A stretch of 64,000 nucleotides of DNA from Owenia fusiformis (Eukaryota > Annelida > Polychaeta > Sabellida > Oweniidae), in assembly GCA_903813345.2 (NCBI GenBank), contig CAIIXF020000010.1, positions 11,659,181 to 11,723,180 of the forward strand, read 5' to 3'. Each line of letters opens with the position of its first letter. Position 1 is the stretch's first letter. The notes beneath the pieces are model-generated. The model ran no database searches and was not told the origin of the DNA. It saw only the letters and a program-made list of their open reading frames with translations. This document shows positions 11,309 through 43,500 of the stretch, piece after piece. Both the position numbers and the translations under genes were made by a program.

Positions 11309-13284
11309 TCAATACAACACCGGGTCCGTACAGACGTATCCACATCCATTCGAGCAGCACTTTTTGCTGCCTTGACATTCACCATCACTTTGACATCGAA
11401 CTTCACATGTTCCAATAGTGCCAGGGGGCAATGTTGGACAAGACGCAGATTCAACTGAAACAAAATCAACAGCATCTTCGTGATCTCCGGTTTTCCTCGA
11501 ACGCAGAGGTTTATTCATATCGCCACTTAGATATGACAATAAATTTGACTATGGTCTGTGGTCTTCAAACACCTCAAATCTATTGATCGTGTTTCGGTCT
11601 GAACACCAACGTCGATGAAAACACATACCGTCCATTAGGGATTCTCATAATTAAAGCCCATCTTTTAATTTAGTTTCTTTCAGTGAGGACCAAGCGTTGA
11701 AAAATATTTTGACTTTGAATATTCCATATGATTAGATTTAACTTAACTATTTGTATGGTGTTTTAGAATACCTTGTTCTGAAATATATTTATTAGGTCCT
11801 TTAGCTTAACGCTCATCAGAATGTAAATCATAAAATAAATCATAACAAGTACAGAAATGGACGTTCAATATCAATTATGAGTTTGAAGAAAGTCTCTGCT
11901 TGATCATCCTATAAACTTAAATGTTTGATGAAAGAAATATAAAATAAAATGTACCTGGAACCTCTTCTTCAGTTGCATCGATATCAAATGGTTCCATCAA
12001 GATTTCAAAGTCCGGTTCTATATCTTCATCTACAAAATATCATATGTCAATACCAATAGGCCTAGCATTTCCTTCCGTTATATTCATCTTACTGTTTTTG
12101 TGTTTACCCTTTCCATTGTTGTTTTTCTATAAACCATTAAAACTATGGAGGGATGTGTTCTCTTTGGGGAGTGGGTGTGTGTGGATGAAAATGCAAAAAA
12201 TACAACGTACAATACTAAAAAATAACTTTAAAATAAGAAACGTCATAGGTCCGGGTTCATGTACAAACATCGAATCTGAGTTTCCCACGACTGTTGATAT
12301 ATGTTGCCGGGGCTATATATAGGAAACATCTTACCAGTCGGATCTTGGAGTGCGGGATCCATACAGGCGTATCCACATCCATTCGAGCAGCACATTTTGC
12401 TGCCTCGACATTCACTATCACTTTGGCATCGAACGTCACATGTACCAATGGTACCAGGGGGTAATGTTGGACAAGACCCAGATTCCGCTGAATACGAAAT
12501 AAAATCAGCAACATTTTTGTAACACATACATATCATTTGCCCCTTATGTAAAGAGGGACTCGCATACTGCACGTTGACATCAAATTCCAAATAATTGCAA
12601 TTTGTATAGTTTCTAAATAGCTGGATAACACGCGGACATATTAGATGTCACCCTTGTTTGGCTTTGGTTTTCTTTTGCCAGACCTCCATTAATATTCGCT
12701 TCAATGCTAGAAACTTGCAATAGTCACTTAACTTCATGATTTATCAAAAAGTGTTGGTTGAATCTGTCTGAAACTCGAATGGCATACTACTGGATGACCC
12801 TGTCAATGAACATATTGTGATTAAACATGAAAATGTTGGTTGCCATACGAATAAGCCAAGGTTTTAATGAATTTTAGCATTTAGTAGGGCCAAATGTCAT
12901 GGGAAATGATTCAAATGACATAACCGTATAAAGCTATTATTGGAGAAAACTTGTCAATGAATTCAAATATGCTATCAAAAATAAAGAAAAGGTGTAAGTC
13001 ATTAGAGGTAAAACGTGCAAATCTCTTAAAATCACATGAAAACGAGAATTAGCGAGATTTCAAAGCTATCTAGAAACTCCGATCGTGGTTTATGGCTTGT
13101 ACTAAAAAAGCGCACAACTCCTTCTTTTATCCAATGGCCCCAAGGCTGCGTTTGCGTTTGTAGCATTTGATTGGTTCAAATAAGAGTTTTGAGATCGTTG
13201 ATATAGTGAGGTCGAGCTTTAGTTGTTTTAATTACCTTCAGCGACAAACCCAATAATCGCAATGACCAACAGTAACTTCATCAT
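11309..13284 (-). CDS. Secreted protein with two WAP (four-disulfide core) domains
   Basis: Coding exons on the minus strand: 13284-13236 (signal peptide MMKLLLVIAIIGFVAE), 12487-12335 (WAP 1), 12029-11955 (acidic linker, EDIEPDFEILMEP), 11454-11309 (WAP 2, TGA at 11311-11309). Every intron is phase 1 with GT/AG borders; total 140 residues. Each WAP domain has all eight cysteines in the family order (SCP..GTC..RC..EC..KCC or MCC..NGCG..C), with proline after the first. The two domains are nearly identical, pointing to a recent internal exon duplication. WAP proteins are usually secreted protease inhibitors or antimicrobial proteins, and some occur in mollusc shell matrix; which applies here is unknown. 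A non-coding first exon and TATA box probably lie at 16339-16387. A GATAAA variant poly-A signal sits at 11223-11218. Confidence 0.85.
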
Positions 13285-19299: not shown

Positions 19300-19439
19300 T
19301 GCCTTGGTCACATAGGCTCCGATTTTCACTACGGCGCCCGGCCGATTGAGTATTTTGTTCAAAATTGAATACAATATTGAACAAAACACTCAATCGGCCG
19401 GGCGCTGGCCGAAGGATCGGAGCATATGTGACCCAGGCA
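19300..19439. mobile_element. 140-bp palindromic MITE (TGCCTTGGTCACAT...) with TTA duplication
   Basis: Inserted upstream of the transposase ATG. Ends TGCCTTGGTCACAT and ATGTGACCCAGGCA, with a long GC-rich inner palindrome (CGCCCGGCCGATTGAGT / ACTCAATCGGCCGGGCG). TTA flanks both sides (19297-19299, 19440-19442), fitting a PIF/Harbinger-type 3-bp TWA duplication. A near-identical copy is at 41011-41150 and a shorter one at 40885-40985. Confidence 0.8.
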
Positions 19440-19463
19440 TTACAATCAGACAACATTTTGACA

Positions 19464-20492
19464 ATGCCAAGACGTCGCTTGAATGCAACTGAGGTTGCTA
19501 GAGCACTAGGGATGCTGGAAGCTGGCTTTAGCCAGCGAAGGGTAGGTGAAGTGATGGGTGTATCCCATAGTGTCATAAATCGAGCAAGCCAACGGCACAG
19601 GGAGACAGGGCAATACACAGAGAGGCCCCGCAGTGGCCGACCATCTGCAACAACCCCCAGAAATGACCGCTATTTGATGAATCTCAGCCTCCGCAACCGC
19701 TTTAGTAGTGCCCGTCGACTCAATAATGCCTTTGCTGATGCTACTGGAGTCATTGTTTCCACTCAAACCATCCGTAACAGACTTCATAGAGCCAATATGC
19801 ATGCCCGAAGGCCTGTAACGCATGTCCCACTGACCCCTGCCCACAGAAGAATCCGTCTCAACTGGGCCCGTGAGCATGTCAGATGGACCCGACTGCAGTG
19901 GGGCCATGTTCTGTTCACCGATGAGAGCAGGTTCACTCTTGATCACAATGATGGACGTGTTAGAGTCTATAGAAGACAAGGAGAGAGATATGCTGATGCT
20001 TGTGTCACAGAACATGACCGCTATGGGGGAGGCAGCATCATGGTGTGGGGAGGCATTTCCTATGATAACCGTACTCGGCTGTATGTGGTTCCCGGGGGAT
20101 CAATGACAGGCGTACGATACAGGGATGAGGTCATTGATCCCATTGTGTTACCCTTTGCAGAAAATGCTGGGGAAAACTTTGTTTTTATGGATGACAATGC
20201 CCGCCCCCACCGAGCTAGGGTGGTGACCGAGTACCTAGAGGACCATGGGATCGACCACATGGACTGGCCTGCAAGATCACCAGACTTAAATCCGATTGAG
20301 CATACCTGGGACATGTTGGGGAGGAGTATTGAAGAGCTTGAAGTTCAACCAGTTGGGATACAGCAGCTAGCAATTGCTCTAGAGGCTGCATGGGACGCTA
20401 TGGACGTAAGAGATGTCAATGACCTCATAAACTCGATGAGACGGCGATGTCAAGCTGTTATTGCAGCTAGAGGTGGCCATACTCGATATTGA
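19464..20492 (+). CDS. Tc1-family transposase, uninterrupted, DD34E
   Basis: Cuts and re-joins the element at TA sites. I chose ATG 19464 (MPRRRLNATEVARALG) because the in-frame ATG at 19365 lies inside the inserted MITE. That gives 342 residues, the usual Tc1 length. The N-terminus has paired helix-turn-helix DNA-binding regions (about residues 1-110, with GRPSATTPRND between them). The catalytic residues are visible: D in FTDESRF, D in MDDNARPH and E in SPDLNPIEHTWD, with 34 residues between the second D and E. WGGISY precedes the second D as in other Tc1 proteins. No stop or frameshift, so it may be active or only recently silenced. Confidence 0.92.
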   Translation: MPRRRLNATEVARALGMLEAGFSQRRVGEVMGVSHSVINRASQRHRETGQYTERPRSGRPSATTPRNDRYLMNLSLRNRFSSARRLNNAFADATGVIVSTQTIRNRLHRANMHARRPVTHVPLTPAHRRIRLNWAREHVRWTRLQWGHVLFTDESRFTLDHNDGRVRVYRRQGERYADACVTEHDRYGGGSIMVWGGISYDNRTRLYVVPGGSMTGVRYRDEVIDPIVLPFAENAGENFVFMDDNARPHRARVVTEYLEDHGIDHMDWPARSPDLNPIEHTWDMLGRSIEELEVQPVGIQQLAIALEAAWDAMDVRDVNDLINSMRRRCQAVIAARGGHTRY

Positions 20493-24568: not shown

Positions 24569-24577
24569 TATATAAAG
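24569..24577 (+). promoter_or_regulatory. Putative TATA box of the RFamide precursor gene
   Basis: TATATAAAG lies 118 bp before the predicted ATG at 24695. That spacing would give a 5' leader of about 90 nt contained in the first exon. No other core element could be seen. Confidence 0.4.
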
Positions 24578-24694: not shown

Positions 24695-27600
24695 ATGAAA
24701 CAACTCACATCAGTTATGACTCTGCTTTTGCAAAGTACTTTGACATTATTTTTAGTGCTGTGTTCCACAGAGATAAGGGTAGACGCCTTCACAGTTTCGT
24801 CAGACAAAGAATTGAAAGATATTTTAAAAGATGTTATACAAAATGTATTATTGGAATCTTCGCCAACATTTCAACTAGACAATAGAAATACAGGTAACAA
24901 CATTTTTATATACATTTATATTTAAACAAAAGGAGTGGTATCGATATGGAGAACTGAATTCAACACTGTTTTTCTCTTAAACCAATCATTGAAAACATTC
25001 TGTAAAAAACACGGTATTTTATGTAATGTTGACTGATTGACAACAATTTAATGCGAAAATAATTTAGAAATATTTTATATAACTGTTTTTGTTAACATTT
25101 TTTGTTTTTTAGTGCAATTGTTTTTGCTCCTTTCTACCAATTCTTGAGAATGAAATAAAATGTCTTTCCGAACCTTGTTGGAACAAAATAGCATGTTTTA
25201 GACCTCTCAATATTATAGTTATACAAAGGAATTTTTGGTTGATTTTAAAAAGTATTCCAAAAATTAAAACAAAATCCCCCCAAAATAGATAAAAATCAAG
25301 ATAAACCTTTTATTTCATTAACAAGATACTTTTTTTAAGTCAACCAAAATTCCCTTTGTACAATTACAATATTGAGAGACCTAAACATGTTGTGTTTATG
25401 TCGTTTTGTTCCAATGAGGTTCGGAAAGATGTTTCATTTCACTCTGGAAACATGATACCCAGAACAAAACAAGTGTTTGACATGTTTTCTAAAACAATAT
25501 AGATGAAAGTATATAATTATATATGTTTTTCAAATTATATTGTTACCATTCAAAAGATGAACATTAAATTGACGATGTGTTAAATTTTTATATTTTTTTA
25601 TGACTAGTTTAAGAGAAAAGTTCTCCATATCGATACTACTCCTTTGCGAGCATTTAATGGGCGAAAGCCAAAGCTAGTAAAGTATTTAATATTCTATTAT
25701 ATGATTACAATATACTGAGAAAATGCATATTTTTGAAAAAAGTAAATTTTTGAGAAAAGGATTTTCAGAAAAATGATTTTTTCTGAAGAAATTTTTGAAA
25801 ATGGAAAAATAGGGGGACGACCATGTGAATATGATATCAATACGGGGACGACTGGTTGAATTTTCAAGATCAGTCATATGGTGTTATTCAACGATTTGAG
25901 TGAAATACAGAAAAAATTCCCGAGAAGGTCTGTATTTCACGATGCGCTAGTGGAGTGAAATACAGACGTTCAAGGGGAAAATATTTTCTGTATTTCACGA
26001 GAAATCATTGAAAACGTTTTTATTCCATTATTACTCATATAAACCCCCCAAAAATCAAGTCCATTTTCTTGGCTTGACCGGAGAAACAGAGCAATCTTCT
26101 TTTTGATCGATATTCCTTCAAATGCTTATTGTATTCTACGGCACGTTTGATTTTCTGTCTTTTCTCTTTAATTTCATCAGCTAGAAGTGCAGTGTAGCGA
26201 AACGTTTTTTGACTTTCGTCTGCCATATCGGATTTTTACGAGTTGATGTACATGCTTCAAAGTGAATTCTTATATTAACAAATGCGTAATTTCTATCCTA
26301 AAATTATGAATTGCGATGATCAAAGTGTCATTTCCTGATATTCAAATTTTCGAGTAAAATGCAAAGATTAACATGCGTTTAGTGAAAACTAATCGCCATT
26401 GATTTTTTCAGAAAGTTGACGTTATTTTCACTCGGTATCCAACGCTATGTGGAAAGTGCGGGTAAATACAAGATATCATTTAAGTCACATGGACCAATCA
26501 GATTGCAGGGAATTTCACCATCATGGAATAAACTTGAGTATTTGATTGAATCAGTAATGTTTCATCCATATTATTTTAATCGCTGTCCACCAGGCAATGG
26601 TTTGGTTGTTTTATTGATTAACATGTTGTTTTTTGTTTATTTTGATTGTTCTGTTGGTAATAAAGTAATGCATTGTTGAGATTATGTTACAATAAAATAT
26701 GTAGGAAGTTTGTCCTCGGTGTTGGGATTATGTCCAACCCCCCCCCCACCCTTATATCGTTGGTCCGTTGGAATATAAACTCAATCTGGCTGTAGTTAGG
26801 TAGCTACATGATATACTGCGGCGTATAGCTATTTTGCGAGAACTAAATTCTTACATGTGCCTACTAGAGTTGTTTCTGAAACCCTCCCTGTTGCGACAAC
26901 AAGTCATTAAGAATGTATTAAATGAAATGAATAAAATAAAAACATCAAAAAGACCAGATTAAGTACACCAAATAACGTGCACGAAACTGAGGAGAACTCG
27001 AAAAATAAGAAGCAACAAAAGCGCGTATGACCGTTTACCCTTAAAGGCCCCATATAAAGTTTAAGCCACTTTGGTTTATATTTCAAAAAGTGTTTTTTAA
27101 GAGACTTTGTCCGAAAAATCGTGAATTTATTCAAAACTGAATTTTAGATCTCACATATATCTTTTAATAAGCGATAATTCACACCAATGCGTAGCATGCA
27201 TAAAAATAAGCGATGCATCCATACACGAAAGTGTTTCAGAGAAAAATGCATTCTAAAATTTTGGTTCTCATTGAAACCAATGTAAGTAATACTTAAAACA
27301 AAACATATTGTTCTTTTCAACCTAGTAAACAATCAACATTGGTTTATTTTAAAAGTTTGGCATATTTAGAAAAAATTGACTTAAAAAATTTTGAAACAAT
27401 TTTGCACCCTAAATGACATGACGATGATGTCACTAAGGGTGCATTTTTTATATGCTAAATATTAAATTGGCACGTTGCATACTAGTATGATATTTTGTTA
27501 TTGAAACAGTATGTTCTTTGTTTAATCTTCACAGTGGTGTTATTAAAAATTAGTATGTTTTGCACTAGTGGAATATTGATGATTTAAAAATTTCAACTTT

Positions 27601-29399
27601 TAATTGAAAAATGCTGGGGGAAAAAAGCTGACAACTTTTTCCCTCAATTTTTCAAAAATCTCTAAAATAACTTTTAAATCATGAGAAATAGTAAATGAGT
27701 GATAAAAACATAGGATGGGGCCTTTAAATATACAGTGACGTCTCTTGAATCAAACTACTTGAAAGTTTCTTGAAATATGAATGACTGAATTTTCTAGAAT
27801 TGGCCCCTATATCAAATATATTAACTTCTGTGTTTGTAATATTTTGTTGGTATATTATGGATCTATTTTAGGTTTAACTCTAAAAGGACTATTGCTTACA
27901 GTGCCAGAAGTTGAACAACGCGGTGAAAGGCAGCATCATAAGTCAATCGCAGAATTTCCAATATACAAAAGTGAGTTGATTCTGACCAATTGCAAATTCC
28001 TTATATATCTGATTCTCTATCATTGCTTACAATATCACTTTAAAATCAAAATTCTTATAAAATCACTGTAACGTTTTCATTATCAGCTGCATTTCCTATT
28101 TTCCCTTGTTTTTGTTTCATAAATATAAGCTTATAAGACAACACAGTATTTCCAGGTAGTATGAATGGTGCAAAACACTGCGCTTTACAAATTCTTTACA
28201 ACACCGACCCCCTATTGGACTACATGTTGAGACCTCTTCATGTTTTATAGATTTCCTATCTATTGTTATTGAGGAAAATGATATATTAATCATATAGTCT
28301 ATCAAGAGGAGATTACCTTGTAGTGCACGTTATTGACCTCATAAATAAATCTTCCGCGTAAACCGTATCGTATAGTATACAACTTCCCACCTTATTTTAT
28401 TTCATGGCCTTCACATAATTTGTACCAAATCTTTGGCATTGTCGTGAAAATAATTTAATCACAGATTCAATGAATTGTGGGTAATTTAATACACTTGTGT
28501 CTTTAATATCAAGCCTTTAAATCCGTGCTCCCGCCCTCATTCAAAGTCTTATACAAGACCCTCGTGCTTAGAATCGCCCACAACTTATTGACCCCAGGCC
28601 ATCTAGCGATTTTCTAAGAAAGTATAAATTGGGAAACAATCCCAACATTTTAACTTAGCATCAGGTGCTACACAACATATCGGAAATCAATGACGACGCT
28701 TTATTGTAAATAGTTTGATATACATACATGTATCTGACAGATACCAGGTGTTTTAACGTCTTCCTCGATGCCAGTAGATAGTTACCAATTTCACCACCAG
28801 GTGGCTAATTCGGATCAGATAACATGGCAGATATATTAGAAATTCGAATATTCCTCAGTTTAAGAGAATCAATTTTCATATTACCCTTATGTACCTGATA
28901 ATTAAAAGATGCCCTATAAAAAGTATTATCCATCCAATGTAAGAAAATATGTTTCACTTTTTGTGGTTTTATAACATGGGGTATATGGGGAATCTCCCCG
29001 ACATAAAACTCACATTTTCAAAGAAAGTTAAATTTTTAAAAAAGTAGATAAACAATTTTTGAAACACATTTGGATATGTAATTTTACATGTAGATTTCGA
29101 ATATGATATCTAGTCTATTTTAAATTTTACTTTAATTACCCTGTCCCTTTTTATTCTAGTGTGTGCACCCATTCCGATACGTAAATACCCCTATGGAGTC
29201 GATAATGAAATGTTCATGTTCGTTGCCCATTTGCTATACATTGTTAAGGTTTGCATATACTCTCATTTCAGGGGCAGGTATGCGGGGAGACATACCAGCC
29301 AGTAAATTTGATGCCCTCATCCGCAAACTTTTGGGTCTATCGGGGAAATCAGATGATGACATAGGAAGAGCAATTCAGATCAGATTTGGAAGAAAATAG
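24695..29399 (+). CDS. Candidate RFamide neuropeptide precursor (3 exons)
   Basis: Exons 24695-24893, 27872-27970 and 29272-29399, with GT/AG borders and phase-1 introns throughout; 141 residues. The N-terminus is a signal peptide (LLLQSTLTLFLVLCSTEI, cleavage perhaps after VDA). A basic pair KR is created across the last junction (PIYKR, then AGMRGDIP). The precursor ends AIQIRFGRK-stop: Phe, an amidation Gly, and a dibasic Arg-Lys. Processing at KR and RK followed by amidation would yield a 38-residue peptide ending QIRF-amide; an internal RK (residues 17-18) or the single R before AIQIRF could give shorter forms. I cannot place it in a named family: it lacks the RPRF end and paired tyrosines of neuropeptide F. 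Secretion and regulated processing are inferred. Confidence 0.7.
24928..25645. mobile_element. ~718-bp foldback element in RFamide-gene intron 1
   Basis: The left end AAAGGAGTGGTATCGATATGG is matched by CCATATCGATACTACTCCTTT at the right. Inner arms also pair (for example CTTTCCGAACCTTGTTGGAAC with GTTCCAATGAGGTTCGGAAAG). No coding capacity. A clean target duplication was not found. Confidence 0.7.
25897..26010. repeat. TGAAATACAGA inverted/direct repeat cluster
   Basis: Four occurrences of TGAAATACAGA or its reverse complement TCTGTATTTCA within about 110 bp, arranged so the segment can form alternative hairpins. Likely a transposon relic. Confidence 0.5.
26035..26226 (-). other. Short lysine-rich open frame, status unknown
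   Basis: A 63-codon frame starting MADESQKTFRYTALLADEI and continuing with a charged helical stretch (KRQKIKRAVEYNKHLKEY). It looks more protein-like than its surroundings but has no signal peptide, no recognised domain and no clear splice sites. It may be a transposon-derived fragment within the RFamide-gene intron. Confidence 0.2.
27045..27723. mobile_element. TTAA-flanked DNA transposon derivative, ~680 bp
   Basis: Ends AGGCCCCAT and ATGGGGCCT are inverted repeats, each bordered by TTAA (27041-27044 and 27724-27727). A TTAA duplication is typical of piggyBac and Kolobok elements. No transposase frame remains. It lies 150 bp upstream of the second exon of the RFamide precursor gene. Confidence 0.7.
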
Positions 29400-31080
29400 T
29401 GCTCCGATTCTCCGAGCCATTTTAGGCTGCACCGGCGCTCTACAGTCGATACCATGGTGGATAAAGTAGAAATCGAGACTGTCTTGGATTCTAAGAAAAC
29501 TAGGACGTAATTTACAAATTTGACGTTCAGCAACGTGCCCAGAGACAAGTGTTCACTAGAGAGGAGGAGTCACCAAGACAGGTTTTATTGTACATCCCCT
29601 GTGAAGAGTTTTCATTTCTTTACAACTCATTTATCTATGATGATAAATATATGAAAAATGCCTACATTCGAACTGTTACAGTTTTTGACTTAGTTAAGAA
29701 TTTGCTCAAATGGCCAATGCTTCTGAATGATGAGTTGCAATCATTCCCGTCGTAAATATAGCCAGCATTTTCTTTCCCGGGTAATTTAACTGAGTTGTAT
29801 TTTCCTATCCAAGCTTGCTTTCTACATTTTTGGTATTTTGATTTGAATATGCAATCTTATATTATTAGTATTGGTATTAGTAAAAATTTATTACGACGTA
29901 TTATCACTAATAAGGCATTCTTAGTTCACCGACAATGACCGTAATTGTGTGATGCAATAATTCAACAACACGATAAAAACCTGATCATAAACATTCAAAA
30001 TCAGAAATGAAATGGTGTTGAGGTGTACAACTATTACTTTACCACACATTATTCTCTTACTATTTGGACATGTACAACCGAAAGTGTACGGAGTTCCGCG
30101 TGAGCACTGAGCATTCCCAGCCTGGGATTCCAAGTGAACGCAGTCCATTATGGATTACAATCATACCCGCAGTGGTCGGTCTGGCGGACATGAAATCAAA
30201 ATTTAACTACTGTTTTAACTATATCTGGAAAACTGGTCAATTTCCATTCAACATATGAGTAATAACAATGGATACAGAGTACCTCCTTTGTCATCATAGG
30301 GAGTATCTTCTTGTTAAACTATTTGTTTTGCCCACCGACGCCCACCACCGTCTGTACCAAGGTTTTCAAACGGTGAGCCCACACGGCCTATTAGTGTGAC
30401 AGCTCCATATATGCCAAACAGTCATGTTTCAATGGTAACATCTTTCTCGGGTTCAATTAAGTGAATCTGATAAAGGCGTTGATATTGTAAGATATGTTTA
30501 ATAGGGAGGTTAAGTTGTACACCTTTTTAAGAGAACTTGTAATTGAGCGTGTAATATTAGACCCCCATGGATTACCGCCCCGCTCTCATTTTACTTTCTA
30601 ATGGCCCTAAATTCAATTAGTTTCAGGAAACTTTTTATACTCAATCGGCCAAGTAAACACTTCAAATGGGACAACAAATCCATATAGGACTATAATTCTA
30701 CACGTTCACATACACGTTTTTTAAAAAGCGTTTAATATAACAGCCCTAATTCTCTAAAGGCGGAGTTATTTAATGCGGTAATATAGCTTGACGCTCGTTA
30801 ACAACATTGTTTATTTCTAAACACCAACTAATACATGTATCTACTTTATATAAAAGGCAATAAAGATGTGCATGCGTAGAATATTCTATCATTCTAATTC
30901 TGCAAGCCTATTATAGAATTAGTCATATATATAATATGTACGTACTACGACATGAATACAGTAATAAAAAATCCGAATGTGTATTTTAATGTATCGCAAT
31001 CATATGCGGTGAAGAATAAGAACGCATGATAGAATGTTGTTTTAGAACTGTTGCCATGGATACCTGGATACCAGCAAAAT
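29400..31080. other. 1.7 kb with no recognised gene
   Basis: The first part is presumably the 3' untranslated region of the RFamide gene. A minus-strand stretch at 30148-30030 with spaced cysteines (CVHLES, QCSRG, GCTCPNS) drew attention, but it lacks convincing splice borders and I make no call. Confidence 0.4.
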
Positions 31081-31136: not shown

Positions 31137-31613
31137 TCAAAAAGTATTGTTCAATTTTGACTGCATTTCTTTGATTCGCTCAAGTCCTTCTGCTATACGA
31201 TGCTGCAGCTTCTCAGATTTTACTTGCATATTTTTTACAAAATCTTTGTGTCCATTTGACCGATTCTGCTCAACCTGGCCAAGTTTCTTAATACCATTGA
31301 GTATGTAATTATTAAGATCATCAGCGTCCTCGTCAACAGGGTTCTTCACCAGTATCTCACTTTCGTTAAAGAATGCGTTCATTGCGTCATTTTGCCTTCT
31401 TCTGAGAGCTCGAAGGCGTTCGTGGACTTTCCTTTTTTCTTCAGATATATCCTCAAATGGTTCAGGAGCTTTCTTATGGAAGTCATGTTTGTTGAAATAG
31501 CCAATATCATCTAACTGTTTAGTGGCAATGTAATCGTATAGGACCCAAAACAACCCTGTACCAATTCCAATCGCTATGATTTTTCTGTAACTCATCAATT
31601 TTCGAATTACCAT
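31137..31613 (-). CDS. Single-exon type II membrane protein with coiled coil, unknown function
   Basis: 158 codons on the minus strand with no intron. Near the N-terminus is a hydrophobic segment (KIIAIGIGTGLFWVLYDYIA) after a short basic stretch, predicting a signal anchor with the rest outside the cytosol. After a charged linker (about residues 45-75, EEKRKVHERLRALRRRQN) the C-terminal third is helical with heptad-like character (VKSEKLQHRIAEGLERIKEM). A canonical AATAAA follows the stop by about 50 bp, which supports a real transcription unit. The layout recalls the anchor and stem of Golgi glycosyltransferases such as polypeptide GalNAc-transferases, but there is no catalytic domain, so it could be a small independent protein or a truncated copy. 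ATG 31613 was chosen; the ATG at codon 7 is an alternative. Confidence 0.6.
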   Translation of the reverse strand: MVIRKLMSYRKIIAIGIGTGLFWVLYDYIATKQLDDIGYFNKHDFHKKAPEPFEDISEEKRKVHERLRALRRRQNDAMNAFFNESEILVKNPVDEDADDLNNYILNGIKKLGQVEQNRSNGHKDFVKNMQVKSEKLQHRIAEGLERIKEMQSKLNNTF

Positions 31614-32049
31614 TTTGGATTTTTTAGAATTGACGTGCTACATGTATGTGCAACTTCTTAGTAATAGGAATGTAGTCATGATAAGTGTATTGATTCAATT
31701 GCTTTAATTCTTCATTTTTATTCAATTAAAATTGATTTTAAGGTTTTTATGGAAATAAAAGAACAGATGCTCAAGAAGTGATTGAATTATCATACAGCTC
31801 AATGTAAGGAAGGCATATTATTGACTTAAATTAAGGGAGATAGTTTTACTATATCTAACAATATTTAAATCGTTGCTTTAATTTGAATGAAAATCTTATC
31901 AGCCCTAGTTGATATTATAGACATCTTAATTTTCCAATAATTGCAATGTTTGTCTGAATGTCTGTACGATTATCTCCTTTATTTACTTTTTTATTTTGAC
32001 CAAACATTTTAATTTATATTTCTGTCATTCTCGTGCACTGGTTTATAAA

Positions 32050-35003: not shown

Positions 35004-38000
35004 TTATATTTGTACGCAAACCTCCTCTGCCACGGGCTCTAGAATATTACCTAGCTCAGAAAACGTATCCAGTTCAAACAGGTACTCAGAGGCGGGTTCG
35101 CTTACCACCTATAAGATGGAAATCATCATAAAATTAAAAAAAAGCTCCAAAACCCACAATTTATTCGAATTTAGTTTTTGGATGTCTGATTTTGACATTC
35201 TTCATAGATTGAAAAGTGATTCAATTTTGAGAGGTCGCAAAAGTAATGAAACTAACTGCAGACAATCGTTACACCGACACGCCGTTGCCGAAATACCGGT
35301 TACTCAAAGGGTAGCTACTATGAACATTGATTGAGTCGTTACAATCGTTGGACATGTACAGAATTAATGCTCGGGGGTTTAAACATATAACAATGAGCCT
35401 TAATGGAATTGCTAGATGTAAGAGTAAAGAGCCTAAACAAGTTCATTTACCTGTTCCCATTCATCTCTTCCAGACCTTCCTCTATCATTAGGAAGTCCTA
35501 AAACATATATTTTGTCCCCTGCTTCTTTTGCTGCAGTTGCATACTTGAATGTTTTCTTATCGAACCTAACTGGATACGTGCGTCCGTCCGTTGCCAATAT
35601 GATTACATTTGGGACATTTGGTCGATCACCTAATAAATCAAAAACACATAATAATAATTGAGTCTCAAGCAAACAAAGTTGTCTACAAAATTATAATTTC
35701 ATGACTTTTCATAAAATCAACTACCGAGCATAGTGACTATGTACATTTTACTAACCATTGCCTTCTGTAAAGAAAACCTCACTAGCGGCTAGCAGAGCAA
35801 GGTCAGTCCTTGTGTGGATACCGTTTACCAGGGGAATTGCGTCCAGCGCTGCTAGAACATCATCCAAGTTATCAAAGTCATTCAGTTGAAAGTGCTGGAA
35901 TACCTCACGGTTAAAACTCATGGCAGCGACCTGAGTTTGGAAGCCTAAGTTTCCAATGTCAAACCTTGAAGTCATATTCTTAAGAAATGATACTACCTTC
36001 TGTAGATCGGGTATTGTAATACTGTTAGAGACATCTAAGATAAAAACGATGTCCAGTGGCTCTCCACACATCTCGATAAAATCTACAAAATGTAATTTAG
36101 TCTGGTAAATTTGAAAGTATATTGTAATGACTGAAACTGCAGATTTGATTGATAAAATATGTGATCAGTTGTTGGATGAAATGAAAATGATTTTTAATCA
36201 ATTTTGAAATGGATGATTTTTACACTAAAATTAATTTAGCTATAGATGTCAGTAAATCTTCTACTGGAAACACAACATTAAAACATGGTCGTATTACAGT
36301 AAGGAAATACAATTACGACGACGCTAATTAGGAAAACAATTAAAACATTGAATTGATTAAACGTCAGTAAAACCAATACCCCAATTTATAAATGAAAGAC
36401 ACACATAGGAGGGACTTTTGAAATTGTTACCTTCTGGACAACTTAGTTGCTCATTACTGCTCATTGCTGTTGATATCTCTTCCGCCATTTCCTCTGCATC
36501 GCCCTCTAAATCAAACTCTAGTATACCTATTGTAGATATGGCCTCCCATTCCATTGAACCGTCTTTGCTTTTGGAATTTTGAAACGCTACCACCATTGAC
36601 TGAAAGTATCAAATGCAGTCACATTTGTAAGAAGATTTCCAATTAGTCTTGATATTTCATGCTATCCGCAATATATCGTACTACTCTCTGTGAACAATAC
36701 GGTTCTTTTGTTCAGGCGAACAAATTTTGACCCAATATTTAACTAGGGGGGTAGTAGATAGCACATTACATTTCAATGCTGTCAACTGATTACACTTGCA
36801 ATTTAAAAAAAGTATTGTTTTTGTTAAAGAAATGAAACACACAAATAAATCCATTTATGTTAGTCAGTACATCTACAGTATAAGGTAACAATAAAAGCAA
36901 TGGATAGAATTACAAAATATACTCAAAAAGTTAAGAAATTCGGCAAATATATTCCCTTAACAAAAATCGAAATTGATATCCACACAGCTATTGTGAAAAT
37001 ATATAACGAACTCATTATACTCATACCTCAGCACCCGTTTCTTTCAGTTTAGCAGCGCTTCTAATAGTCAGTTTGTATTTCGATGCTGGTGACGTCACAC
37101 CATCAGTCATCATAAGATGGAAGTTTGTATTATTTGCCCTGTCCCCATTTTCAGGATTAAAAAAGTCTGTCCTAATTCGATCCAGAGCTGTGTATGTTGT
37201 AGTTCTACAATCAACTGGCTGCAGACTGGCTTTTCCAATAGCGTCCAACAGAGCCTCTTTGTCACTATATTCATTGAGGAAGAATACATTTTGTACACCT
37301 CTGTTGAAGGTTAACAAGCCGACTTGATAATCATTTAAACCAGTACCTATAGTTCGGAAACTACTGACTACAGCCAGGACTATTTCTCGCATGACTTCTC
37401 TGTCAGCGTCTGTTATTGAACAACTTGTGTCGAGAGAAAAAACGACATCTAAACAACCTGAAACATTCAATGAGGGATTATTATTTTTGAATGCAAACTT
37501 GGAATCTCCATTTCCACAATTTTGTGACACGGAATACATCAAAGTCATCCAATGACTTATTGCTCAAATTAGGTACAATTATGTATTGATTGATTTAATT
37601 AATCGAACTATTTAAGCATTAAAATATGAATACTTCAGAGGAAGACTAAGAACTGATTAATCTATAAATGTACAGTCAATTGACTCACAGTTGTAGCCCT
37701 TGATTTGTAATTAAAATGTCATAAATAATATGAATGTGGGAAAGATCTGTACAAATGCCAATTTCAATAATGGAATGCTATATGCAGAGCTGTAATGTGA
37801 GAAGGGCTGAACTGTTACTATTATTGTCATTTTATATGTTGATAAGTTTGGGCGTCGTTCACCTCACAGGATGCACTATTTATGAGAGTAAAAAAAACAC
37901 ATATCATGAAATTTCTTTTAGATCCGTGTAAATCACCGTTCGAATTTGTGCCGAAATTTTTTATTAAGTGTTTGTGCAGGGAAAGAAAAGGACAACCAAA

Positions 38001-38637
38001 TCTACCTTGATCTTTACCTTGAACTTGAGCAAAGGACCGCGAGTTGTTTGTAGAATGAATCTGGGGAGCGTTTTCATGCTTAACTCGCGGTCCTTTATAG
38101 CAATATTCAAGGGATTTGTTCGAATTTCATCTTGATCCATTTTACAAATAGCTGTTTAGTGATGCTTGATATAACATTACGCTTTCATTTCCTTGAATGA
38201 TTACATACTTAGTGTGCAACATTTTGTAGTTTTGTCTTTAGAATCTGTAACTTATGACACGACCTTTGAAAAATCTGACTTGTAGAGCTCACTTTGCAAG
38301 ATTCCTACACACGTTGAATATTTCATGAATTTTTTTCAAATGCGTAGACTTTACAAAAAAACAGTAAAACCTGTCTAAGTGAACACCTCTCTGTAATGAA
38401 CACTTGTCTCCCGTAGACATCCTTTTTCCATACATACTCTACTGACTTCTGTATAACTTACTATATAACTCTCTGTAGAGAATACAAACACTGGACGTTT
38501 TTTCTTTCAAGAAACTGTTCAATATACACAGGTTATACTCTACAAATATCCACCACTCTTAACATTTACTGAGAAAACTCACCTGATGCAGTCCATACGT
38601 GAGCCAATAGACCAAGAATTACCGTTATAGTCTTCAT
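35004..38637 (-). CDS. Secreted two-vWA-domain protein, copy A
   Basis: Coding exons (minus strand): 38637-38583 (signal peptide MKTITVILGLLAHVWTAS), 37457-37027, 36599-36431, 36082-35756, 35629-35451, 35108-35004; borders GT/AG; 421 residues. vWA 1 starts CLDVVFSLDTSCS, vWA 2 starts DIVFILDVSNS. Both hold complete MIDAS metal-site motifs: DxSxS, a conserved Thr (TTYTALD; RTDLALL) and TDG (MMTDGVTS; LATDGRTYP). Such domains bind protein ligands through a divalent cation. There is no transmembrane segment or other domain, so this is a short extracellular vWA protein, perhaps of extracellular matrix. The acceptor at 36082 adds three residues compared with copy B. The last exon encodes the closing helix (SELGNILEPVAEEVC). 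Family-level assignment is sure; role unknown. Confidence 0.88.
38031..38096. repeat. GC-rich 15-bp perfect hairpin in vWA-A intron
   Basis: AAAGGACCGCGAGTT (38031-38045) pairs perfectly with AACTCGCGGTCCTTT (38082-38096) around a 36-nt loop. It lies in the intron between the signal exon and vWA 1. Could be the end pair of a short MITE. Confidence 0.6.
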
Positions 38638-39117
38638 GCTATCTCTGAAATAAATGTATAAACATATATCATGGATATATCGGATGTCCCAAAAACTGAA
38701 ACACTTTTTGACAAGTATTTTCTCGACAACTGATGAACCACATTCACTGAAATTCGTTCCAAGTAGCCTAAAAGTATTATAAGCAAGTTGTAGAAATATA
38801 AAAAAGATCAACTAAATATTCTGTGAGAACTAAGAAACTCAAAATAGCATGTCAAAAATTCCCATACCAGAGCTCTGCGATGAGACCTTAATAGTGTTTG
38901 TACCAGCTCTCTGTATCATCTCTCAATCAGTCAAAATAGCTTGTCTTTGTGTCATGGCTTATCAATTTGTTTCATTCTTCCCAAATATCCCAAACCATTC
39001 ATTCTCAAAATTAATTGGAGGTGATTGTTAGATTGTTATAATATGAGACAAATCTCTAACATATTCATGGCGCTAACAGAAGATACTTTTAAGTGCCTCA
39101 ATTAAAGTTCTTAAAGA

Positions 39118-39152
39118 ATTTGGCTCATCTATTGTTGATGAGCCAAATTGCC
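39118..39152. repeat. TTGGCTCATC hairpin
   Basis: TTTGGCTCATC is followed, after a seven-base loop, by its exact complement GATGAGCCAAA. Inside the first intron of vWA copy A. Confidence 0.6.
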
Positions 39153-39334
39153 TTCCCATTTTTGGTACAAACGCTATGAAGTTATTGAGTTGCTCCGGTA
39201 TGGGATCTTTTGACATGCTATCAATTGAATTTCTTAGTACTCATATAACATTTACTTGATCTTTTTTTATATTTTTGGTTCTTCAGTTGCCAAGAAAATA
39301 CTTGTCAATATATACTATATATATACGTAAATAT

Positions 39335-39432
39335 AGTAGCCTTGCCCAAGTCGGTATTTTTTACTTATCTCATCTTCGATTATAAAGTCAAAAAAATAAA
39401 AAGACTCAGACTTGGGCAAGACTATAAATATA
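39335..39432. repeat. Inverted repeat with GCCTTGCCCAAGTC ends
   Basis: TAGCCTTGCCCAAGTC at the left and GACTTGGGCAAGACTA at the right frame an ~100-bp AT-rich unit. One further end-like copy is at 55706-55726 (CACCGACTTAGGCAAGGCTA). A small MITE family. Confidence 0.55.
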
Positions 39433-40071
39433 GTCGCAACATGAAATTGAAAAGCAATATGTCACATGTGTGACAACAATGATAACACAAAATGAGAGGT
39501 TGCAAAAATAGGATACAGAACTGTCACAAGAGATAATTACAAAGGGAAACATTAAAGGAAAATGGCGACCCTTTTGAACCATAAAATTGTTAATCAAAAA
39601 CATGAAACACATTGTCAAAGGATATAAAGGTTTAGAGGATATAATACCAAATTCATTTAAATTAATTCAAAGAATAGAATTTCAGTTCGAAATGAACAAT
39701 AATGAACAAAAAATCTATTTTACTATTTTGTGTGATTGTTAGTGCTCAGTAAAGTCTAGAACTGGAGATGCAGATTATAAAAGTCCTTCCGTGACCCTTT
39801 CGTACTAATGAGGGGCACTCACAATGAATGCCTTTAAGGCAATGCCCCAAATTGTAATTGTTTCAAAGTTTTAAATTTGATTTTTCATCTTTTATTATTC
39901 ATATAATATTATATTTTTTATTTTCTATATACTTATTTCAAATATCTGTTTTTTGGTATTAAATCTTAGTTCCCATCTTGTTCTTCAAAGTGAGAAAGAT
40001 CACATGATGTATTTAACTTTTAGATTATTCTATCAGTTAATTTAACAAAAATAAGTTTAAAATAAAATTAC

Positions 40072-40250
40072 CTTTTCTATGTAGGCTCTATTAGGTCCGA
40101 CGTGTAATCCTATGTTGTAAAGACAGGGAGATCCGATGAGGCATATAACTCCCTTTATTGTTGTATATTGCTAATAAGCTTAATTGATATAATGGCGAAA
40201 ATTCAATTTGTCATAGACTTACAAACAAGTAGCCATACACGTGAGGTTTT
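40072..40250 (-). promoter_or_regulatory. Promoter and non-coding first exon of vWA copy A
   Basis: On the minus strand a donor (CATAGAAAAG then GTAATT, exon end 40072) is preceded by sequence homologous to the promoter of copy B: GGATTACA about 40 nt upstream of the donor, a weaker TATA-like CTTTACAAC in place of CTTTATAAC, and further upstream an ATAACTCCCTTTATTGT block (given on the plus strand) and ATAATGGCGAAAAT. The signal-peptide exon starts with an acceptor seven bases before its ATG, so a leader exon is required. Confidence 0.65.
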
Positions 40251-40486
40251 GAGTCAACCAAGCGTGGACATTAATGTTGCCCATAATGTCAATCTTTTTA
40301 TCATACTACTCCACAGATTATTGAAAAAATCATGATTTATGAGTGACAAATGCGTTTGGAGAGTCGCTGCACAATGCAAATAGTTTAAATACATATTATA
40401 CAGTTCTGCTTTGTTTAGTTTCGTGAATATATCTCATTAGTGAAAAACGAGATTTTCAACGATTCGGTTAAATATGTTGTGTATTC

Positions 40487-40492
40487 TTTATT
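40487..40492 (-). terminator. Poly-A signal AATAAA for vWA copy B
   Basis: TTTATT on the plus strand, 65-70 bp past the TAG of copy B. Copy A has no AATAAA in the equivalent place, only a GATAAA at 34922-34917, at the edge of the transposon relic described above. Confidence 0.55.
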
Positions 40493-40556
40493 TTTCTTTT
40501 AACAAAAATATATGAAGGGTGTTTTGCATTTTTTCTACCTTTGCTTGTATGCTATA

Positions 40557-43500
40557 CTATACTTTTTGACAAACTTCCCCTGCTATTGGATCTAGAATAC
40601 CATTCAGTTCAGAAAACCGTTCCAGTTCAAACAAGTAATCGGATAGTGGTTTACTGGCCACCTATACGTTCAAAGAATAGATAGCAACTAGAATTAAAAT
40701 AGTAGCTCATCACATATAATTTGTTTAGATGAAGAACGTGATTTCAATTTTATAGAGTGACTGCAAATATACAAATCAATGTTATAATGTTTATATCATC
40801 TTGTTTCACAATGTTTCAGTTGCTCCAATTGTTATAACGCCCTGCTGAATGTCGAAGATGTGTTTATATAACAAAGGTTAATGTATGGGTCACATTTGCT
40901 CCTATTCATCGGCCTTCGCCCGGCCGATTGAGTATTTTGTTCAATATTGTATTGTAGTGAAAATCGGAGCAAATGTGACCAAGGCATTATTCATGTAGAG
41001 TACTATGTGATGCCTTGGTCACATTTGCTCCGATTTTCACTACGGCGCCCGGCCGATTGAGTATTTTGTTCAAAATTGAATACAATATTGAACAAAACAC
41101 TCAATCGGCCGGGCGCAGGCCCATGGATCGGAGCAAATGTGACCCAGGCATAAATGGTAACAATAGGGACTAAGGAGTCTGAATATAAGCATTTACCTCT
41201 TCCCATTCATCTCTTCCAGACCTTCCTCTATCATTAGGAAGTCCTAAAACATATATTTTGTCTCCTGCTTCTTTTGCTGCAGTTGCATACTTGAATGTTT
41301 TCTTAGCGAACCTTACTGGATACGTACCTCCGTCTGTTGCCAATATGATTACATTTGGGACATTTGGTCGATCACCTGAATATAAATAACACAAACAATC
41401 TATAAATAATGGGCAGAACACTCTTCAAAATTGAATAAGTAAAATATAATTCATTCATTGATCTATTGGAAAACTATTTTTTATTTTCTCGCTGACTCCT
41501 ACGTAAATACTCTAAATGCTCAACTAACCATTTTCTTCTGTGAAGATCACTTCTCTAGCGGCCAAGAGAGCAAGGTCGGTCCTTGTGTGCTTTGCGTTTA
41601 CCAGGGGAATAGCATCCAGTGCTGCTAGAACATCATCCAAGTTGTCAAAGTCGTTCAACTGGAAGTGCCGAAACACTTCACGGTTAAAACTCATGGCAGC
41701 AACCTGAGTTTGGTAGCTCTTGCTTCCTATATTTAACTTTGAAGTCATAGTTTTAAGGAATGAAACTACCGTCCGCAAATCAGGTATTGCAATACTGTTG
41801 GAGACATCTATAATATATACGATATCCATTGGCCTTCCACATATTTCTATAAAAGAGATAAACATGTTGATAAATGACAGTGTCTCTCTTTTGATCCAAG
41901 ATAACTCCAAATTATCTGATCCACATTGCTCTTCACCAACGATTGCACGTTGCCTATTTGGTACAAACCTTTTCTGAAAATATCAAACTTGAAAAAGTCC
42001 TAAATTGAATTTTACTCCTCTCGGCCCATTTCAGTTTTTCAAACTTACTCAACTTGAAATATGATTTTCGGCTATTTTAAAGTCTACTGATGGTACAAAT
42101 ATGTTAATATTTTTAGTTTTTGGAGAGGTTGACAATTTTACATTTTCCTAGAATAAATGGGGGAAACAATGAGCCTTTTTATTATTTACCTAAGCACTTT
42201 ATTTTCTCGTTCGCTTCCATTGCATCTGATATACTTTTACCCATTTGCTCCACCTCTTCTTCTACTATATCAAGTCTCAGTATTCCTGCTGTTGATATAG
42301 CCTCCCATTCTTCTGTACTTTCATTTACTTGTTTTTTGCTTTTGGGTTTACTAAATGCCACCACCATTGACTGAAATTTGAATCGTTAAGAATAAAGCAT
42401 TTAGAATCTGTTACTTACAGACTTAATTGAAGGTGTTCGAGTGTTTCGAGTTCTTGCAACATTGTCAACTGAGTCGCTGAAGTTATGATGGATGGATTTA
42501 GAATGGATGGTTGTCGAACTGGATGTACACATCGTATTAGCAGCTGCACATTAAGAATGTTTTCCAATATATTGGTAATTTTCAATTTTTCCAATTTAAT
42601 ACATAAATTAATCAACACGAAGAAACAACATTAATTTGAAAAACGTGCTCTTTCTCTCCCATTTACCTCAACTCCTGTCTTTTTCAGTTTAGCAGCGCTT
42701 TTTAAAGTTACTTCGGATCTCTTAGTTGGTGCGGTTACACCATCTGTCATCATGAGATGGAAATTCGTGTTGTTTTTCCTCCCACCAGTTTTCCGATGAA
42801 AAAACTCTGTCCTTACTCGATCAAGAGCTATATACGTCAGACGTCTACAGTCAAAAGGCTGCAGATCGGCATTTTTGATTGCATCTAGCAACGCGCCTTT
42901 CTCAGTATATTCGTTGAGGTAGAAAAGCTTTTTAACACCTCTATCGTAAGTTAACATGGCGACTTGATAGTCATTCTCCCCAGTACCTATAGTTTTGAAA
43001 CTGTTGACGACAGTCATGACTATTTCTCTCATAACTTCTTTATCAGCAACTGTTACTGAACAACTAACATCAAGAGAGAATACGACGTCCAAACAACCTT
43101 GAACAAAGAACAAAGGGGTAGAATGATTTTCCATGGTTGTAACCCTGGAAAATGAGAGAGTTTTGGATGTTGATATTCAGAATAAGGAACATGTGAAATG
43201 TAACTTGCTTTGGTCCGGTTCATAAATTAAAGATTATTTCCATTTCGCTGGAAGTTTATGATTTTCCCTCTAATCAGCTGTTTCCTTAAAATCGAAATCT
43301 TAAATTTGGGTTGGGGCTGAGACGAAACTTTACTTTTGTAATGAATAAATCCAAAAGAGCCATATTCAGTTTGAATGGCTGATGAGCATGTCTCTACGAT
43401 ATTTTAGTGCATAAGCGTTCGGTATTTCAGTGCACTTTTCTCGAACTTTTTCTCGATGTACATCGCGATATGCATCGATGTTTACTACTGAAAATTGCCG

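What the first reader, a model, noticed from the sequence alone, without database searches (positions are those of the whole stretch)
24695..29399. Unassigned RFamide-type neuropeptide precursor with a predicted 38-residue amidated peptide
Seen: signal peptide, a KR pair made across an exon junction, and a C-terminus IRF-G-RK-stop, the classic prohormone cleavage and amidation layout, from three exons with matching phases. Known: Phe-Gly-dibasic ends give Phe-amide peptides. Inference: one long helical RFamide (AGMRGDIP...AIQIRF-NH2), with shorter forms possible at an internal RK. It lacks the RPRF and tyrosine pattern of neuropeptide F and the repeated copies of FMRFamide precursors, so it may be an undescribed or lineage-specific family.
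Basis: partly seen in the sequence, partly recalled or inferred. Interest (0 to 1): 0.82.

Follow-up and report, generated by a model that had tools for sequence, protein, structure and literature searches.

The report
Candidate gene for long RFamide neuropeptide
An animal genome, probably a marine worm's, seems to hold an unnamed gene for one long nerve-signalling peptide ending in Arg-Phe-amide; the layout is convincing on paper, but no RNA, peptide or relative in another species has been seen.

Summary
Three GT/AG exons (24695-24893, 27872-27970, 29272-29399, +) give a 141-residue precursor: signal-like start, a KR made across the second junction, a 38-residue peptide, then FGRK-stop as predicted. 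Searches found one copy in the 498-Mb assembly and no Pfam or relevant PDB match. A signal-like first exon followed within 6 kb by an amidation-type exon occurred in 2 of 400 random windows, none ending RFG. Codon usage helps only weakly.

Best reading (0.68): a real proneuropeptide releasing one long amidated RFamide, probably lineage-restricted. It fails tested defining features of neuropeptide F, NKY, FMRFamide, pleurin and QRFP; iPTH/QSGamide and CRF/ELH are inconclusive. An RGWamide-type gene, 498 Mb and at least 12 large contigs suggest an annelid near Owenia fusiformis, unproven.

New here: the genome also encodes a GPCR whose best PDB match is the human QRFP receptor; lophotrochozoan QRFP receptors were listed as orphan in 2021 (PMC8557429). 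A pairing is testable, not shown. A two-exon model starting at 27781 would give the same peptide. Transcripts, peptides and homologues could not be examined.

The parts
24569..24576 (+). TATATAAA, possible TATA box 126 bases before the ATG
   Evidence: 3 such sites on the + strand of the window, so suggestive only
24695..24893 (+). Exon 1: signal-like start (cut predicted by eye after residue 31, base 24787) and start of propeptide
   Evidence: donor CAG|GTAACA
24929..25645 (.). Palindromic repeat element inside intron 1, not part of the peptide
27781..27970 (+). Alternative first exon of a two-exon model, in frame with exon 2
27872..27970 (+). Exon 2: rest of propeptide, Lys codon at 27967-27969 and first base of the Arg codon of the KR site
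   Evidence: donor AAA|GTGAGT
29272..29399 (+). Exon 3: last two bases of Arg, mature peptide, G-R-K, TAG stop
29274..29387 (+). Predicted 38-residue amidated peptide, AGMRGDIP...AIQIRF-amide
   Evidence: cutting and amidation inferred
29388..29396 (+). Gly amide donor and Arg-Lys cleavage pair
30859..30968 (+). First two AATAAA on the + strand after the stop (30859-30864 and 30963-30968), possible polyadenylation signals
   Evidence: 192 AATAAA in the window on both strands, so not informative alone

Best explanation
A protein-coding gene for a secreted proneuropeptide. The signal peptide sends the 141-residue precursor into the secretory pathway; a prohormone convertase cuts after KR (residues 99-100); a carboxypeptidase removes the C-terminal RK; PAM turns the exposed glycine into an amide. 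One 38-residue peptide ending AIQIRF-amide is released and would act on a rhodopsin-type GPCR. Shown: open spliced frame, splice signals, KR directly before the peptide, terminal FGRK-stop, one copy found. Inferred: transcription, splicing, cutting, amidation, neuronal release, receptor. Most likely it is a lineage-restricted RFamide outside the families tested.
For: Layout. Rarity against random DNA: paired exons in 2 of 400 random windows, RFG-ending pairs in 0 of 400; RFG[KR][KR] ends 1 against 0 in 60 random windows. Signal-like starts with a donor: 5 in the window, this one included, against a mean of 0.96 in 25 random windows. Exons 1-3 score above 89%, 84% and 98% of 803 other ORFs for codon usage. 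TATATAAA at a fitting distance. One copy found, so not a repeat.
Against: No transcript, peptide or homologue seen. The CDS scores -4.6 bits in all for codon usage, per codon below 7 of 8 Pfam-confirmed stretches, and exon 2 does not prefer its own frame. Donor 1 and acceptor 2 are mediocre. Chance layouts of this kind must exist in 498 Mb. No Pfam or relevant PDB match. Recalled: SMIM20/phoenixin also ends FGRK and its standing as a hormone is debated.
Confidence: 0.68

Rival explanations
1. Chance assembly of open frames, or a gene whose real product is not a hormone: the amidation-like end has no function.
For: Weak codon score, mediocre donor 1 and acceptor 2; no family or homologue; a genome of this size must hold such layouts by chance; 2 of 400 random windows show the paired layout without RF.
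Against: The specific RFG ending with a signal-like exon did not occur in 400 random windows; exon 3 exceeds 98% of other ORFs for codon usage; KR falls exactly before the peptide.
Confidence: 0.22
2. The gene is real but has two exons: translation starts at 27781 and reads through the supposed exon-2 acceptor. The mature peptide is the same. (Compatible with the best explanation.)
For: Frame open from 27781 to the exon-2 donor; its start also passes the signal rule. Acceptor 2 is mediocre.
Against: Exon 1 has a more classical signal peptide (judged by eye) and the TATATAAA at a fitting distance.
Confidence: 0.2
3. A divergent member of the lophotrochozoan NKY family (long single RY/Famide peptides).
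For: Length 38, RF-amide end; by eye PAS and D[VI]GR are shared with the scallop NKY printed in PMC5996578. No NKY was found elsewhere in the genome with that query: one match, E 2.87, judged spurious.
Against: Alignment not above shuffles: 756 of 5000 (local) and 556 of 5000 (global) reach it. No N-terminal Lys, C-terminal Tyr or NKY-1/NKY-2 motif.
Confidence: 0.07
4. A divergent QSGamide/iPTH peptide acting on a PTH-type secretin-family receptor, perhaps as the 20-residue form released at the internal RK.
For: Long amidated peptide after KR; the 20-residue form would have Ser-Asp at 8-9, near the Ser-Asp at 7-8 (alignment numbering) stated for iPTH.
Against: The whole peptide has Ser-Asp only at 26-27 and Gln, not Pro, at -4; the Tribolium precursor extends beyond GRR, this one stops.
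Confidence: 0.04
5. A secreted amidated peptide used outside the nervous system, for example for defence.
For: Helical prediction; such peptides can share the processing (general knowledge).
Against: Net charge only +2 before termini, no clear amphipathicity.
Confidence: 0.06

Closest known systems
QRFP / 26RFa (chordates)
   Same: One long RFamide per precursor (PMC4062910 passages; C-terminal position in the precursor recalled); an apparent QRFP-type receptor is encoded in this genome
   Different: 0 of 4 listed conserved residues in the last 25; no N-terminal Gln
NKY (lophotrochozoan)
   Same: Long single peptide, 38 residues in oysters, up to 43 elsewhere with an RY/Famide end
   Different: No N-terminal Lys, C-terminal Tyr or central motif; alignment to scallop NKY not above shuffles
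Neuropeptide F / NPY
   Same: 36-40 residues (listing), RF-amide
   Different: No RxRF, no tyrosine; the genome's own NPF frame ends at a GT inside the last Arg codon (GGAAGACCAAG|GTAAG), here RF lies inside one exon
iPTH / PXXXamide / QSGamide
   Same: Long amidated peptide after KR
   Different: Ser-Asp not near the start of the 38-mer, no Pro at -4, no C-terminal extension
FMRFamide, SLRFamide and pleurin precursors
   Same: RFamide end in some members
   Different: Multi-copy or PRX-type peptides; single-copy pleurin sits directly after the signal peptide

Membership tests
Proneuropeptides in general | Signal peptide, convertase site, amidation Gly before basic residues | tested here: met
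   By sequence and simple rules only
Proneuropeptides in general | Neuronal expression and processed peptide | not testable with these tools
   No RNA or peptide data held
QRFP | Single-copy RF-amide peptide | tested here: met
   (amide inferred)
QRFP | L4, A8, K18, G20 in the 25-residue form | tested here: not met
   R, G, G, A: 0 of 4; positions from PMC4062910
QRFP | Activates a QRFP-type receptor | not testable with these tools
   Candidate receptor L012 present
NPF/NPY | RxRF or RxRY end | tested here: not met
NPF/NPY | Pfam Hormone_3 match | tested here: not met
   No Pfam family up to E 10; the genome's NPF is at C1:41204880
NKY | N-terminal Lys, C-terminal Tyr, NKY-1 or NKY-2 motif | tested here: not met
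   definition from PMC6425005 passage
NKY | Similarity to a known NKY peptide | tested here: not met
   One scallop sequence only; 756 and 556 of 5000 shuffles reach the score
iPTH/QSGamide | Ser-Asp at 7-8 (alignment numbering), Pro at -4 (mildly conserved) | tested here: inconclusive
   Ser-Asp at 26-27 of the 38-mer, 8-9 of the shorter form; Gln at -4
FMRFamide precursors | Several short RFamide copies | tested here: not met
   One RFG in the precursor
CRF/DH44/ELH | Pfam CRF or ELH match | tested here: inconclusive
   None for this protein, but neither model found anything in the genome at E 10, so they may be insensitive here
Pleurin | PRX-amide end | tested here: not met
   Ends QIRF; definition

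The most novel reading that the evidence does not exclude
The peptide is the missing ligand of the lophotrochozoan QRFP-type receptor: the receptor was kept from the bilaterian ancestor while the ligand changed everywhere except its long single-copy form and RF-amide end, so similarity searches missed it.
Probability: 0.08. Interest if true: 0.75.

Novelty: new member of a known kind. Interest (0 to 1): 0.42.

Why it matters
If expressed, it adds an unnamed long RFamide to a spiralian nervous system. It would also be one concrete candidate for receptors still listed as orphan in lophotrochozoans, above all the QRFP type, of which this genome carries an apparent example. One receptor assay could decide that pairing.

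Tried and rejected
Empty or uninformative: Pfam for precursor and peptide, 0 families up to E 10; PDB sequences, one irrelevant hit at E 2.6; paralogues in the own genome, none found; CRF and ELH models in the genome, no match at E 10, the ELH control silent and the CRF control ringing once below cut-off; COX1 to identify the organism, none. Paper search for QIRFamide, QIRFa, QIRF-NH2, QIRFG, IRFGRK, AIQIRF: 2 papers, both off topic by title and abstract start.

Organism: APGW-GKR pattern, 0 matches; a repeated GWGK[KR] pattern, 2 matches, RGWamide-like. This makes a mollusc less likely; it excludes nothing. Fit to Owenia fusiformis (505.8 Mb, 12 scaffolds; PMC9977687 passages) is a resemblance.

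Receptors: of 113 matches to human QRFPR (830 first-look candidates, 115 scored), 8 loci were cut. Four (L010-L013) were tested back against the PDB; only L012 returned QRFPR. L014-L017 were translated but not tested back. Four more regions (L018-L021) were fetched and compared, not tested back; L018 looked like an allatotropin/orexin-type receptor by eye, from recall. The PDB holds mostly vertebrate receptors (recalled) and no tree was built.

NKY: query with a printed scallop peptide gave one match, E 2.87, without an NKY motif in the frames printed. iPTH sequences were sought in PMC7224569 and PMC9552230 and not found in the passages.

Not run: scans of viral, metagenome and prokaryote collections, which are not expected to hold an animal homologue.

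Changed after checking: confidence lowered from 0.72 to 0.68 because the codon result is weaker than first written; iPTH moved from 'not met' to inconclusive; NKY comparison added.
Full report
What is there. Three + strand pieces, 24695-24893, 27872-27970 and 29272-29399, join into an open frame of 141 residues. Both introns begin GT and end AG and are phase 1; of five junction combinations tried, only this one is free of stops. The start looks like a signal peptide: Lys near the start, a run TLLLQSTLTLFLVLC, then RVDA|F (judged by eye; a simple rule also accepts it; no dedicated predictor was available). Dibasic pairs are KR 99-100, directly before the predicted peptide, RK 117-118 inside it, and RK 140-141 at the end. 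IRF-G-RK-stop is the usual layout of an amidated peptide (established knowledge).

Is it more than chance? Of 817 stop-to-stop ORFs of at least 35 residues in the window one ends RFG[KR][KR]; 60 random windows of the same dinucleotide make-up gave none. For any [FYWMLIV]G[KR][KR] end it is 1 against a mean of 0.15. A signal-like first exon with a donor and, within 6 kb on the same strand, an amidation-ending exon with an acceptor occurred in 2 of 400 random windows, never with RF; single RF-ending exons averaged 0.01 per window. The real window qualifies twice, since an ATG at 27781 also passes. The rules were set after seeing the candidate and so that it passes; the phase match and the KR were not required. 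Codon usage, trained on 834 codons from eight Pfam-confirmed stretches, puts exons 1, 2 and 3 above 89%, 84% and 98% of 803 other ORFs. But the CDS sums to -4.6 bits, and exon 2 scores lower in its own frame than in both others. Left out in turn, seven of the eight training stretches lie above 97% of those ORFs and one (WAP) above 38%. So codon usage is weak support. TATATAAA stands 126 bases before the ATG, one of 3 on that strand. The first AATAAA after the stop are at 30859 and 30963, common motifs here.

Copy number and surroundings. Searches with peptide and precursor match only this locus in the 498-Mb assembly. Intron 1 holds a palindromic element, 24929-25645, with 39 other near-full-length copies at 89-93% identity listed; 40 of 3432 first-look candidates were scored, so this is a lower bound. 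Other frames in the window: VWA exons (35.7-43.2 kb, minus strand), TPR exons (56.2-59.9 kb), WAP (12243-12647, minus strand), a Tc1/mariner-like transposase (19350-20492). None bears on function.

Which animal? A neuropeptide F-type frame at C1:41204880 ends ...GRP-AG|GTAAG, so a protostome is likely. Two exons with KRGWGKR repeats (L008, L009) are RGWamide-like, which PMC8557429 (abstract) gives as the annelid orthologue of mollusc APGWamide, with orthologues in nemerteans, brachiopods and phoronids. APGW-GKR gave no match. C1 is 62.2 Mb and C9 38.9 Mb long, and C12 holds matches beyond 36 Mb, so there are at least 12 numbered large contigs. Owenia fusiformis has 505.8 Mb in 12 scaffolds (PMC9977687 passages). 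I regard an oweniid as likely, not proven.

Structure. AlphaFold2 on the 41-residue piece without an alignment gives helices 9-21 and 28-38, mean pLDDT 77.5, pTM 0.46: helix-turn-helix at best. Hydrophobic moments are reached by 654 and 2289 of 5000 shuffles for the two helices.

Families. No Pfam family, no relevant PDB sequence. Tested and not met: neuropeptide F end and Pfam model, NKY diagnostic residues and motifs, pleurin end, multi-copy FMRFamide, QRFP conserved residues, 0 of 4. NKY deserves care: the scallop NKY printed in PMC5996578 (section 40 and passages) shares PAS and D[VI]GR with this peptide by eye, but 756 (local) and 556 (global) of 5000 shuffles reach the alignment score. 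That query found no NKY elsewhere in the genome, so a diverged NKY is unlikely but not excluded. iPTH/QSGamide is inconclusive: Ser-Asp lies at 26-27 of the 38-mer, but at 8-9 of the 20-residue form that a cut at the internal RK would give. CRF/ELH is inconclusive because the models find nothing in the genome.

In print. Of the papers, PMC4208409 (outline and abstract) names five mollusc RFamide genes; PMC8398477 (sections 19 and 24, passages) adds oyster pleurin and SLRFamide; PMC3890597 (sections 11 and 12, passages) names annelid families including SLRFa and CCRFa; PMC8557429 was read in sections 5, 6, 7 and 10 and in passages. PMC4200219, PMC6425005, PMC7737342, PMC4062910, PMC5818035, PMC7224569, PMC9552230, PMC9539403 and PMC9977687 were seen in passages only. 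None of this text describes a long single-copy IQIRF-amide. Supplements were not available, so absence from print is not established; searches.

A possible partner. PMC4062910 states that QRFP-type receptors occur in lophotrochozoans without identified ligands; PMC8557429 (passage) still lists them as orphan in 2021; later work was looked for only. The third best, L012 (C9:26378256-26379206, 34% identity), returns the two QRFPR entries first, 146.8 and 146.5 bits, ahead of the orexin-2 receptor at 130.7 and NPFFR1 at 127.5. L010, L011 and L013 return NPY2R, NPFFR1 and NK3R. So an apparent QRFP-type receptor is present; no tree was built. The peptide has the form of QRFP (single, long, RF-amide) but none of its four listed conserved residues. 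It could work like one; it is not shown to be one.

Verdict. Observation confirmed. An RFamide proneuropeptide is the likeliest reading (0.68), without RNA, peptide or homologue. The QRFP-receptor pairing is a bold guess worth one assay.

Noticed in passing
24929-25645: Palindromic repeat element in intron 1; 39 other near-full-length copies at 89-93% identity listed in the own genome, a lower bound.
   Followed up: partly
27781-28071: Open frame with a hydrophobic start running through the exon-2 acceptor; an alternative start giving the same peptide.
   Followed up: partly
L012 (G000:C9:26378256-26379206, minus strand): GPCR with its 7TM region in one open frame; best PDB match is the human QRFP receptor.
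   Followed up: partly
L008 and L009 (G000:C5, about 24.995 and 24.999 Mb): Two neighbouring exons with KRGWGKR repeats, RGWamide-like; L009 has its own signal-like leader.
   Followed up: no
L002 (G000:C1:41204880-41204981): Neuropeptide F-type frame ending at a GT inside the last Arg codon.
   Followed up: partly
19350-20492: Long frame with Tc3-type HTH and DDE domains, Tc1/mariner-like transposase.
   Followed up: no
35751-43176: Four VWA-domain exon frames on the minus strand, two similar pairs in tandem.
   Followed up: no
31137-31637: 166-residue minus-strand frame with a hydrophobic anchor-like start and no Pfam match at E 0.01.
   Followed up: no
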